Origin: Candidatus Woesearchaeota archaeon
GTDB lineage: Archaea > Nanobdellota > Nanobdellia > Woesearchaeales > GW2011-AR9
Assembly (NCBI GenBank): GCA_018303265.1
Contig: JAGVYN010000001.1
Coordinates: 1-32,268 of the forward strand
Reading direction: 5' to 3'
DNA length: 32,268 nucleotides
The notes under the pieces are model-generated. The model saw only the letters and a list, made by a program, of their open reading frames with translations, ran no database searches and had not been told where the DNA came from. The translations under genes were made by a program, and so were the position numbers. This document shows, one piece after another, positions 4,774-19,549 of the stretch (position 1 is its first letter; the number at the start of each line of letters is the position of its first letter).

Positions 4774-5471
4774 TTTTGAAGATCTTTCACCTTCCCAAAA
4801 TCAAACACTTCTCCTTTGTTTACAATATACACTTTAAAAGTGGCGATATCTTCCAGAAAAGGGCTTAATACTTCTTCTTTCAGAATATCTGTTCCTTCCA
4901 ATAAAGGATTGAAACTGGGCACGGCAATCAACTCTTTCCGTTGCCATTTCCCTTTGAGAAAGCATTTATACTTTTCCCATTTGCTTCCTTCCCTCATTGT
5001 TATGGCCGGATGCTCGTGCCCGATAATAATTCTTGTAGCCTTTGTTTCCATAAGCTCATCGCCGTGAACAATAAGCGTATCATCAACACTGTATTCTGTT
5101 ACAACGGCAACCCTTCTTTTTTCCGCAATGGGGGCAATGATAGGATCATGATTTCCTTTGATAATAATTACTGTTTTGCATTTTTGCAAGACAACATCAA
5201 GGAATTGTAAAACTTCTTTCCATTCCTGTTTCAATACTGTGCCAAATTCATGTTTCAGATCGCCGTTGATAATCACTTTTTCTGGCTTTGTTTTTTCTAA
5301 AATATGTTCTAGTTTTGTTATAATTTCTTTTAGTTGAAATTTTGGTACGAGAATCCCCTTTCGCTGCAATACTTCTTCATATCCAATATGGAGATCGTTG
5401 ATGATAAGAATATTTTGTTTCTTGAGCCATAATGCCGTTTCGATAATTTCTATGCCTTTTGCTATCTCCAT
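4761..5471 (-). CDS. Metallophosphoesterase, SbcD-related archaeal type
   Basis: INDLHIGYEE, INGDLKHEFG, KGNHD and GHEHP motifs in order. Confidence 0.88.
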   Translation of the reverse strand: MEIAKGIEIIETALWLKKQNILIINDLHIGYEEVLQRKGILVPKFQLKEIITKLEHILEKTKPEKVIINGDLKHEFGTVLKQEWKEVLQFLDVVLQKCKTVIIIKGNHDPIIAPIAEKRRVAVVTEYSVDDTLIVHGDELMETKATRIIIGHEHPAITMREGSKWEKYKCFLKGKWQRKELIAVPSFNPLLEGTDILKEEVLSPFLEDIATFKVYIVNKGEVFDFGKVKDLQKRAK

Positions 5472-5527
5472 TTTCGTTCTTGGTGAAAGAAATCTTTATA
5501 AATCAATTGTTTTAATTACTTTGACAT

Positions 5528-5638
5528 GCCCCCGTGGCTCAGCGGTTAGAGCGGACGGCTGTTATCTTTATAGAAAGATACCGTCAGGTCACCAGAGGTC
5601 TTGCAAGAGACCGGTGAATTCAAATCTGGTCGGGGGCG
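5528..5638 (+). tRNA. tRNA-Asn(GTT) with two introns (5565-5579 and 5596-5618)
   Basis: Acceptor GCCCCCG/CGGGGGC; D-arm GCTC/GAGC; anticodon stem GACGG/CCGTC with loop CTGTTA^A; T-stem ACCAG/CTGGT and loop TTCAAAT after removal of the 23-nt insert; TTTATAAA upstream near 5492. Confidence 0.85.
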
Positions 5639-6574: not shown

Positions 6575-6697
6575 TTGGTTTATATTCACAAGAAGAGTTC
6601 GGAATGTCCGCATTGTAAGCATGCTTTTGTTTCTTTTATGTTCTCTGGGCTAAAAAGTATTTATTGCCCGTTCTGCCACAACCGCATAAAAGTTTAA
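6575..6697 (+). CDS. Putative 40-aa zinc-ribbon microprotein (TTG start), not in the ORF track
   Basis: Translation (M)VYIHKKSSECPHCKHAFVSFMFSGLKSIYCPFCHNRIKV*; two CPxC knuckles; in-frame TAG upstream leaves TTG at 6575 as the plausible start. Confidence 0.55.
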   Translation: MVYIHKKSSECPHCKHAFVSFMFSGLKSIYCPFCHNRIKV

Positions 6698-6722
6698 AAA
6701 GATCGGTATTTCTTTTCACTGC

Positions 6723-6917
6723 GGCCCCATAGCTTAGTCTGGTTGAGCGCTGGTCTTATATGATCACTGATGGAACAGAAATAGCAAGCCATTAGCTGCC
6801 TGGAAAGCCAGAGGTCCTGAGTTCAAACACAGATCTCCCAGATCTGGTAGGGGGATTCGCGGTCACTGCGTTCCCGCTCATAAGGTTTGGGTGTCTTTGA
6901 AAGTCTCGGTGGGGCCA
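6723..6917 (+). tRNA. tRNA with two introns; anticodon not certain (Ile(TAT) if the anticodon-loop intron is at 37/38)
   Basis: Acceptor GGCCCCA/TGGGGCC + A73; D-arm GCTT-AGTCTGGTT-GAGC; anticodon stem CTGGT/GCCAG; variable AGGTC; T-stem CTGAG/CTCGG interrupted by ~76 nt at about 6828-6903. Confidence 0.72.
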
Positions 6918-11920: not shown

Positions 11921-12319
11921 TTATCGTTTCTTTTTTCTGGCCAGGCTCCGGCCGTTTTCTTTTGTGAATAATTCAATCTTATCTGGATTTTTTTCAATTT
12001 TTTTGACAATGGATGCTGGACCGATGATTGTCAGCCCTTGACGATCACCTAACAAAAGATGAGCGAACGCTCCCTTTAACCATCGCGTTGCTGATTGCTT
12101 GTCTTTATCAGGATAGATCACGCTTAACTCGATTCCTTTAAATCTCGAGTCAATTCCTTCCATGGTACACTCAATAAGATCAGCTTCTTCTTCTTTTGTC
12201 AACCGCCCTTCCATAATGACGATACAGTCATCTTTGACAATGTTAAGAAGCTTGTTTATCCTCTTGGCAGAAGATAAATCTTCCACATCATTATACGGAA
12301 CAAATTGAAATGTAACCAT
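11921..12319 (-). CDS. DUF2073-family protein
   Basis: VTFQFVPYNDVEDLSSAKRINKLLNIVKDDCIVIMEGRLTKEEEADLIECTMEGID pattern. Confidence 0.8.
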   Translation of the reverse strand: MVTFQFVPYNDVEDLSSAKRINKLLNIVKDDCIVIMEGRLTKEEEADLIECTMEGIDSRFKGIELSVIYPDKDKQSATRWLKGAFAHLLLGDRQGLTIIGPASIVKKIEKNPDKIELFTKENGRSLARKKKR

Positions 12320-12388
12320 TTTACCTCTTTTTTGTTTCTTGGGAAAATTTATGTGTTTTTAAATGTTTATTTTTTAATATCGATCTCT

Positions 12389-13021
12389 TCATACAAGCTT
12401 AAACAACTGCTCGTAAAAGCCTTCAATATTCTTTCCATATTTTGCGGAAATGCCCACCACTTCATATTGCGGAAAAGCGGCTTTGACAACATCCATGTTT
12501 GCTTTCTTAAGATCAACTTTGTTCGCTGCAATAAGCACAGGAATGTCCCTTGCTTGCAAATTCCCAATGATAGTAATGTTCACTTGCGAGTATGGGTCCT
12601 GCGTAGCATCTAAGACAACGACCACTGAATCCATGTCATCAAGCCATTTGATGGCATCTACCACTCCTTTGGTAGCTTCCTTCGCACGTTTTTTTGCGTC
12701 CAGTTTCTTCATGCCTCTTCTAATAAAATCTTCATAATCAATCTTGGTGGCAATACCCGGAGTATCAACCAAAGAGAAAGTTAATTCTTTTCCTTTCTTG
12801 TTTTTTATTGTAACCTGCTCTTTAATGGTAATTTCGCGCGTTTCATGCGCAATGTGAGAAATCGTAGACATCTCTTCACCTAACCAATCCTGGCAAATAC
12901 GATTGGCGAGGGTGGACTTGCCGCCATTTGGCGGACCATATAATCCTAATTTGATAGTATTCTTTCGATTAAATGGATTAAAACCGAGCTTTTTAAACAG
13001 TTTCTTAAAAAATCCTCCCAC
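12389..13021 (-). CDS. Era-like GTPase
   Basis: GPPNGGKSTLANRI, VDTPGIATKI, ANKVDL; GTG start at 13021 (MGGFFKKLFKKLGFNPF) is preferred over the listed start at 13153, which would overlap the divergent gene. Confidence 0.88.
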   Translation of the reverse strand: MGGFFKKLFKKLGFNPFNRKNTIKLGLYGPPNGGKSTLANRICQDWLGEEMSTISHIAHETREITIKEQVTIKNKKGKELTFSLVDTPGIATKIDYEDFIRRGMKKLDAKKRAKEATKGVVDAIKWLDDMDSVVVVLDATQDPYSQVNITIIGNLQARDIPVLIAANKVDLKKANMDVVKAAFPQYEVVGISAKYGKNIEGFYEQLFKLV

Positions 13022-19196: not shown

Positions 19197-19270
19197 ATGT
19201 ATTTTTTTCTATTTTTCTTCTTAAGTTCTTATATTTTTAAATTTTGACAGCCTCCTCTGGGATAGCGAAA

Positions 19271-19549
19271 TCACAGTTTTGGCATAAGTGCAAAGATAAT
19301 TTTTGCACTCACACTCTTTAGTTTCATTATCGCATATATTGGTGCTACCTTCAAAGGTATTTCTGCAATGATATGCAAATGTTCTGGTTCAACTTCTCTT
19401 TCAAGAAGCACCACATTTGCTTTTTTCGCAGCTTCTTCAAGAGCAATTACACAAATCTTTTTAGAGTAATCGCTATTGAAGATCTTGTAGCGATATTTTG
19501 TGCACCACTCAATATGCCAAGTACTCTTGCCTTCAGCATGGTGGAGTGG
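19271..19549 (-). pseudogene. tnpA: IS200/IS605-type TnpA (Y1 HUH transposase) relic
   Basis: Minus-strand translation ...HAEGKSTWHIEWCTKYRYKIFNSDYSKKICVIALEEAAKKANVVLLEREVEPEHLHIIAEIPLKVAPIYAIMKLKSVSAKIIFALMPKL*; HLH = HUH motif; stop TGA at 19271-19273, no in-frame ATG. Confidence 0.8.

What the first reader, a model, noticed from the sequence alone, without database searches (positions are those of the whole stretch)
6723..6917. Second doubly interrupted tRNA: ~45-nt anticodon-loop intron plus ~76-nt T-loop intron
Acceptor, D, anticodon and T stems all pair, but only if ~76 nt (about 6828-6903) is removed from inside the T-loop (TTCAAA^...^T, near 59/60) and another insert is removed from the anticodon loop. 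TTCA/TGAA at the T-loop boundary can form a relaxed BHB central helix. The T-loop intron has its own strong hairpin CAGATCT-CCC-AGATCTG. With the Asn gene, both tRNAs in this window have a T-arm intron, which suggests genome-wide non-canonical intron spread.
Basis: partly seen in the sequence, partly recalled or inferred. Interest (0 to 1): 0.78.

Follow-up and report, generated by a model that had tools for sequence, protein, structure and literature searches.

The report
tRNA-Ile with repeated T-loop intron
A tRNA gene of an uncultured Woesearchaeota-type archaeon is broken by two introns, and the one in its T-loop is a copy of a small RNA element that has spread into the same loop of many different tRNA genes in this and related genera, making it a case of tRNA introns multiplying in a group where this had not been described in the papers I could search.

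Summary
Window 6723-6917 is a tRNA-Ile(UAU) gene in three exons: 6723-6760, 6806-6827 and 6904-6917. It has a 45-nt intron at 37/38 and a 76-nt intron at 59/60 in the T-loop; the spliced 74-mer is a perfect tRNA-Ile(tat) to ARAGORN. Orthologues support this: all 23 I parsed keep the anticodon intron, 14 also have a T-loop intron, and 9 show the uninterrupted T-loop that splicing here should give. No second copy was found in this 83%-complete genome. TiaS is absent from 40 of 40 genomes, so this gene should be the AUA decoder.

Six copies sit in T-loops of different tRNAs here (Ile, four Ser, Leu), and eight more strong copies in five other genera. Some cores are 56/56 identical although TopA is only 69-78% identical. 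Each copy carries a 3' end complementary to the universal TTCR of the T-loop and a head-tail helix, so it makes a bulge-helix-bulge wherever it lands. A sister family occupies both T-loop and anticodon loop. The precedent is tRNA intron transposition in Thermoproteales; this is a T-loop-centred variant in DPANN. Splicing and the mobility mechanism are inferred.

The parts
6694..6701 (+). Putative archaeal TATA box (TTTAAAAA), about 22-29 nt upstream of the tRNA
   Evidence: Read; a CCTTTTAAA box lies at a similar distance in orthologous loci L078, L084, L085, L087. Inference, no transcription data.
6723..6760 (+). Exon 1 of tRNA-Ile(UAU): acceptor 5', D-arm, anticodon stem 5', loop CTTATA (32-37, anticodon TAT)
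6761..6805 (+). Intron 1, 45 nt, at 37/38; i2-i5 can pair with exon 29-32; central helix of the BHB weak in this genome
   Evidence: an intron at the same place in all 23 orthologues
6806..6827 (+). Exon 2: A38, anticodon stem 3', variable loop, T-stem 5' CTGAG, T-loop TTCAAA (54-59)
6828..6903 (+). Intron 2, 76 nt, at 59/60 in the T-loop; member of repeated intron family A
6830..6884 (+). Conserved core of family A (CAGATCTCCC...CATAAG, 55 nt here)
   Evidence: Alignment A1; 6 copies in own genome, 14 strong copies in 6 genera
6898..6901 (+). TGAA of the intron 3' end (-6..-3), pairs with TTCA (54-57) of the exon to give the BHB central helix
6904..6917 (+). Exon 3: T60, T-stem 3' CTCGG, acceptor 3' TGGGGCC, discriminator A73
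   Evidence: identical T-arm CTGAGTTCAAATCTCGG uninterrupted in orthologue L088
5528..5638 (+). Neighbouring tRNA-Asn(GUU): 15-nt intron 5565-5579 at 37/38 and 23-nt intron 5596-5618 at 53/54 with a 4/4 central helix (CACC:GGTG)
   Evidence: junction read by hand

Best explanation
The locus is a functional, single-copy tRNA-Ile(UAU) gene that decodes AUA in an archaeon lacking the TiaS/agmatidine route. Its transcript carries two bulge-helix-bulge introns that the splicing endonuclease EndA cuts out and an RNA ligase seals. The T-loop intron belongs to a repeated family (A) that has been copied between tRNA genes. It is portable because its 3' end (NGAA) pairs with the universally conserved T-loop bases T54-T55-C56-R57 and its head pairs with its own tail, so any copy landing in a T-loop is at once a splice-competent hBHBh' intron. 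Shown by sequence: exon/intron anatomy, orthologous empty sites, the repeated family, covariation at the junction, head-tail complementarity. Inferred: transcription, splicing, single-copy status (genome 83% complete), and copying between loci by some DNA- or RNA-level event whose enzyme is unknown.
For: Spliced sequence is a complete tRNA-Ile(tat). Nine orthologues have an intact T-loop, one (G007) with exactly the predicted spliced T-arm. T-loop introns across 40 tRNAs: R57=A goes with intron -6=T in 27 and R57=G with C in 8, with no crossed T/C case (5 others do not pair; rows are not independent and were chosen for at least 3 of 4 pairs). All 6 family-A hits in this genome and 14 strong hits in 6 genera lie in tRNA T-loops, sense strand. 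Carriers span Ile, Ser, Leu, Asn, Arg, Gly and Gln-like tRNAs, while the same Ile site in relatives holds family B, unrelated introns or none. Core identity is 92% between genera and 91% within genomes, up to 100%, against 65-78% TopA protein identity. 18 of 18 family A/B copies tested have a tail complementary to their own head, each P<0.03. Family B sits in T-loops of Ile, Ser, Glu-like, Arg, Gly tRNAs and in the anticodon loop of Ser(CGA). TiaS absent in 40/40 with controls positive; EndA present in 46/48.
Against: No RNA data. Own EndA gene carries a 68-nt tandem duplication that breaks its frame, perhaps an assembly error. Central helix of the anticodon intron is only 2/4 here. High core identity could reflect constraint on a functional intron RNA instead of recent copying. 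No mobility enzyme is linked: no reverse transcriptase in the own genome, and Y1 transposases do not track the introns. The genome is an incomplete MAG, so an intronless copy cannot be excluded.
Confidence: 0.82

Rival explanations
1. The T-loop introns are old and vertically inherited; the near-identical cores are kept by strong selection on an intron-encoded RNA with its own function, not by recent copying.
For: Cores are identical across genera while the tails vary; part of the distribution is vertical (Ser-GCU of G032 and G014 share a 56/56 core); 14 of 23 tRNA-Ile(UAU) genes across several families have some T-loop intron.
Against: The same site in orthologues holds family A, family B, unrelated introns or nothing; family A is found in only 8 of 353 genomes of the order; no Rfam family matches the intron; family B occupies two different intron positions within G014.
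Confidence: 0.2
2. Copies spread by gene conversion or recombination between tRNA genes through their similar T-arms (GGTTCRAA ... T-stem), with no element-specific mobility.
For: All flanks share GTTCRAA; own Ser(UGA), Ser(GGA) and Ser(CGA) share the same tail GTCTTGGAGACTGTTGAAAG; L077 joins a Gly 5' half to a Gln-type 3' half across the intron, as recombination at the repeat, or a misassembly, would give.
Against: Family B is also in an anticodon loop and antisense upstream of topA, and a family-A-like copy lies by gatE, where there is no T-arm flank; tRNA bodies of different isotypes are not otherwise homogenised.
Confidence: 0.3
3. A DNA transposition event, for example a non-autonomous element of the Y1 (IS200/IS605, HUH) type, which has subterminal hairpins and a fixed short target, inserts 3' of RAA, and the inserts are then tolerated because they can be spliced.
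For: Insertion nearly always follows RAA directly, in T-loops and in Ser anticodon loops; a palindrome lies at the left end; a broken Y1 transposase lies in this window.
Against: G014, G032 and G065 are 90-100% complete, carry copies and have no Y1 transposase; very few copies lie outside tRNAs; no match in plasmids, phages or viral contigs.
Confidence: 0.12
4. The locus is a decayed tRNA pseudogene with random insertions.
For: Standard tRNA finders do not report it.
Against: All stems pair perfectly, orthologues have introns at the same positions, and no other tRNA-Ile(UAU) was found in the genome while TiaS is absent.
Confidence: 0.03

Closest known systems
[quoted passage not shown] 2010, as described in PMC4090602; Sugahara et al. 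2008)
   [quoted passage not shown] mechanism unknown.
   Different: Here a Woesearchaeota-type (DPANN) lineage, spread centred on one position (59/60) whose central helix uses the universal TTCR; a few copies outside tRNAs.
Non-canonical tRNA introns at 53/54 and 59/60 in Crenarchaeota and Nanoarchaeota (review PMC4090602)
   Same: Same positions and same hBHBh' splice motif.
   Different: The passages read name positions and phyla, not a repeated T-loop family; Woesearchaeota are not treated in the papers I could search.
Multi-intron tRNAs of Asgard Atabeyarchaeia and Freyarchaeia (PMC11291895)
   Same: Most tRNA genes interrupted, often at non-canonical positions, over half with several introns.
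   Different: That paper does not describe a repeated intron family in the passages read.
tRNA-Ile(UAU) of Nanoarchaeum equitans and Korarchaeum cryptofilum (PMC6000648)
   Same: UAU anticodon instead of the usual agmatidine-modified CAU; the Korarchaeum gene also has an intron.
   Different: Found there in only 2 of 167 genomes; here in 23 Woesearchaeales genomes, always with an anticodon intron.
[quoted passage not shown]
   Same: Same isoacceptor with anticodon-loop and T-arm introns; intron-dependent pseudouridylation studied.
   Different: A eukaryote; no sign of common descent of the introns.

Membership tests
Archaeal BHB tRNA intron (EndA substrate) | 4-bp central helix between two 3-nt bulges at the exon-intron junctions | tested here: met
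   T-loop intron: TTCA:TGAA 4/4 with AA^C and AG^T bulges. Anticodon intron only 2/4 in this genome but TAAG complement in 10 of 23 orthologues and 87% of cells paired.
Archaeal BHB tRNA intron (EndA substrate) | Removal restores a standard tRNA | tested here: met
   ARAGORN tRNA-Ile(tat), 74 nt; uninterrupted orthologues.
Archaeal BHB tRNA intron (EndA substrate) | Splicing endonuclease encoded by the organism | tested here: inconclusive
   PF01974 in 46 of 48 family genomes, own copy at G000:C13, but the own copy has a frame-breaking tandem duplication.
Archaeal BHB tRNA intron (EndA substrate) | Cleavage and ligation observed | not testable with these tools
   No RNA data.
Transposed tRNA introns (Thermoproteales type) | Near-identical introns in tRNAs of different identity in one genome | tested here: met
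   Six copies in Ile, Ser x4, Leu.
Transposed tRNA introns (Thermoproteales type) | Intron history differs from tRNA history | tested here: met
   Same Ile site holds A, B, unrelated or none in relatives; no tree was built.
Transposed tRNA introns (Thermoproteales type) | Descent from the Thermoproteales introns | not tested
   R1 was searched only in the order of the window.
Group I intron | Conserved catalytic core (P3-P9), usually >200 nt | tested here: not met
   76 nt; no Rfam match to any intron family.
IS200/IS605-type (Y1) element | Y1 transposase in carrier genomes | tested here: not met
   None in G014, G032, G065, which carry copies.
AUA-decoding tRNA-Ile(UAU) replacing the agmatidine route | UAU anticodon present and TiaS absent | tested here: met
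   TiaS PF08489 in 0 of 40, controls positive in 4 archaea.

The most novel reading that the evidence does not exclude
A mobile BHB intron that targets the tRNA T-loop: the excised intron, probably circular, is reinserted after RAA in tRNA loops because its ends pair with the universal TTCR sequence, so the tRNA splicing machinery itself acts as the host of a minimal selfish RNA that moves between tRNA genes, between intron positions, across genera and now and then outside tRNAs.
Probability: 0.25. Interest if true: 0.85.

Novelty: new variant of a known kind. Interest (0 to 1): 0.62.

Why it matters
How archaeal tRNA introns multiply is an open question, known mainly from one hyperthermophilic order. 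This family offers near-identical copies, empty sites and replaced introns at one defined position in a second, unrelated group, so gain events can be caught by strain comparison. It also shows that the standard tRNA tools used here miss a large part of the tRNA set of a Woesearchaeota-type genome, including the AUA decoder, which affects completeness and codon-usage analyses. The T-loop offers a mechanistic reason for spread: the intron brings a splice motif that fits nearly every tRNA.

Tried and rejected
Rfam for the intron: no family. Viral contigs, plasmids and phages: no match. Y1 transposase and reverse transcriptase as drivers: presence does not track the introns. Ser or Leu identity from other junction choices (GGA, UGA, UAA anticodons): rejected because the variable loop is 5 nt and orthologues fix CTTATA|...|A. 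An H-type pseudoknot in the intron head (CAGAT:ATCTG crossing YYCC:GGRR) has some compensatory changes, but the same bases form the head-tail helix, so I do not claim it.

Full report
What was checked. The stretch 6723-6917 was spliced in silico at the proposed junctions. Exons 6723-6760, 6806-6827 and 6904-6917 join to a 74-nt sequence that ARAGORN identifies as tRNA-Ile(tat). The raw gene is missed by ARAGORN and gets only a sub-threshold partial Rfam tRNA score, 17.3 bits. Acceptor, D-, anticodon and T-stems pair fully. In 1181 shuffled copies of the window only one contained a comparably perfect T-loop-interrupted frame. A search of the genome with the mature sequence found no second copy; the genome is 83% complete.

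Organism. The window is G000:C2, an 866-kb assembly in 50 contigs, with an archaeal SRP RNA. The nearest named relatives of its aIF2-gamma are mostly records titled Candidatus Woesearchaeota, so it is a Woesearchaeota-type DPANN archaeon.

The isoacceptor. Among archaea the anticodon UAU was found in only 2 of 167 genomes, Nanoarchaeum equitans and Korarchaeum cryptofilum (PMC6000648); others use CAU modified to agmatidine by TiaS. TiaS (PF08489) is absent from this genome and 39 relatives while the archaeal controls are positive. So this interrupted gene is expected to be the AUA decoder and essential. That is an inference from absence, strong because it is uniform.

Orthologues. I parsed 23 tRNA-Ile(UAU) genes from 23 genomes of the order. 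All 23 have an intron of 19-47 nt at 37/38. Fourteen also have a T-loop intron at 59/60 of 19-149 nt; nine have an intact T-loop. The intact T-arm of G007 (CTGAGTTCAAATCTCGG, L088) is exactly what splicing should give here. For the anticodon intron, exon CTTA (32-35) pairs with intron -6..-3 in 87% of cells, at most 57% when slid; in the window itself only 2 of 4 pairs remain.

The T-loop intron is a repeated family. A DNA search with the locus returned, beside itself, five more places in the own genome and several in other genera, all matching the intron and not the tRNA body. The five own copies are T-loop introns at 59/60 of four Ser tRNAs and a Leu tRNA. A covariance model of the family (A1, R1) finds 14 strong copies in 6 genera of the family and nothing outside that family among 353 genomes of the order. 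Carriers include Ile, Ser, Leu, Asn, Arg, Gly and a Gln-like tRNA. Core identity between genera averages 92%, as high as within genomes (91%), and three copies in three genera are identical over 56 nt; TopA of the same genera is 65-78% identical.

A second family (B) has the same layout, with head CAGATGTCACGYC. It lies in T-loops of Ile, Ser(CGA), Glu-like, Arg and Gly tRNAs, in the anticodon loop of Ser(CGA) of G014, and once outside tRNAs, antisense just upstream of topA in G065. In G064 and G065 a weaker family-A-like copy lies next to a partial duplicate of the start of gatE. So the elements are not confined to a single site class.

How a copy works. In 40 T-loop introns the base at -6 follows the exon base 57: A57 with T in 27, G57 with C in 8, never crossed (selection required at least three of four pairs, and rows are related). 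In 18 of 18 family A and B copies the tail is complementary to the head of the same copy, P<0.03 each, although tails differ between tRNAs. Each copy therefore carries the whole h' side and needs only TTCR from its host. Nearly every tRNA has TTCR in the T-loop (established knowledge), which explains why a copy that lands there can be spliced at once.

Genome-wide spread. At least eleven tRNA genes located in this genome have a 59/60 intron: six of family A, and five short unrelated ones of 17-30 nt, in probable Asp, Gly(GCC), Ala, Val(UAC) and one unassigned tRNA. Ser(CGA) has three introns (D-loop, anticodon, T-loop), as does its orthologue in G014. The Asn gene in the window (5528-5638) has introns at 37/38 and 53/54. 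The inventory is partial, and was partly found through family A, so no percentage is claimed.

Mechanism of spread. Three routes fit in part: copying through RNA (reverse splicing of an excised intron, then conversion of the gene), gene conversion between T-arms, and DNA transposition. Sense orientation and exact placement after RAA favour a process tied to splicing sites or to a short target. Copies in an anticodon loop and outside tRNAs argue against T-arm conversion alone. Reverse transcriptase is absent from the own genome, and Y1 transposases are absent from three well-covered carriers. I commit to copying between loci, not to a route.

Literature. Positions 53/54 and 59/60, multi-intron tRNAs and large-scale intron transposition are known from Thermoproteales (PMC4090602; PMC8450103), and Asgard genomes with most tRNAs interrupted were reported in 2024 (PMC11291895). 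A search for Woesearchaeota together with tRNA, intron and splicing endonuclease returned only a paper on group I introns in rRNA (PMC6125680). Papers outside the open library could not be searched.

A side result. In the 23 tRNA-Ile(UAU) precursors, intron bases i2-i5 pair with exon 29-32 in 96% of cells, with compensatory changes in three genomes. This would put the anticodon into a hairpin loop UUAUAU before splicing. Eukaryotic tRNA-Ile(UAU) needs its intron for pseudouridylation of the anticodon (established for yeast Pus1, from my own knowledge; related work in PMC9602550), so an intron-dependent modification here is a testable idea; it would explain why this intron is never lost.

Noticed in passing
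tRNA-Ile(UAU) intron 1, window 6761-6805, and 22 orthologues: Intron i2-i5 pairs with exon 29-32 in 96% of cells with compensatory changes, giving a precursor-only anticodon hairpin; the intron is present in 23 of 23 genes. Possible intron-dependent anticodon modification.
   Followed up: partly
L153 (G000:C13, about 12297-12618): The only EndA gene of this genome has a 68-nt tandem duplication that breaks the frame inside the catalytic domain: assembly error, strain variant or real.
   Followed up: partly
L137 (G065:C25) and L138 (G064:C15): A family-A-like element lies upstream of gatE after a second copy of the gatE start; in G064 the differences between the two copies that I looked at are synonymous.
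   Followed up: partly
G065:C31:3524-3556 (L169): A family-B element outside any tRNA, antisense just upstream of topA.
   Followed up: no
L077 (G005:C45, about 885-981): Gly-type 5' tRNA half, family-A intron, then a Gln-type 3' half: recombination at the intron, a split-tRNA arrangement, or misassembly at the repeat.
   Followed up: no
L062 (G000:C47, about 5287-5543) and L083 (G014:C1): tRNA-Ser(CGA) with three introns: D-loop, anticodon and T-loop.
   Followed up: partly
window 19268-19522 (-): Remnant of a Y1 (IS200/IS605-type) transposase with an internal stop.
   Followed up: no
40 Woesearchaeales genomes: TiaS is absent throughout, with tRNA-Ile(UAU) as the apparent replacement; the standard tRNA tools used here on the raw window missed the gene because of its introns.
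   Followed up: yes
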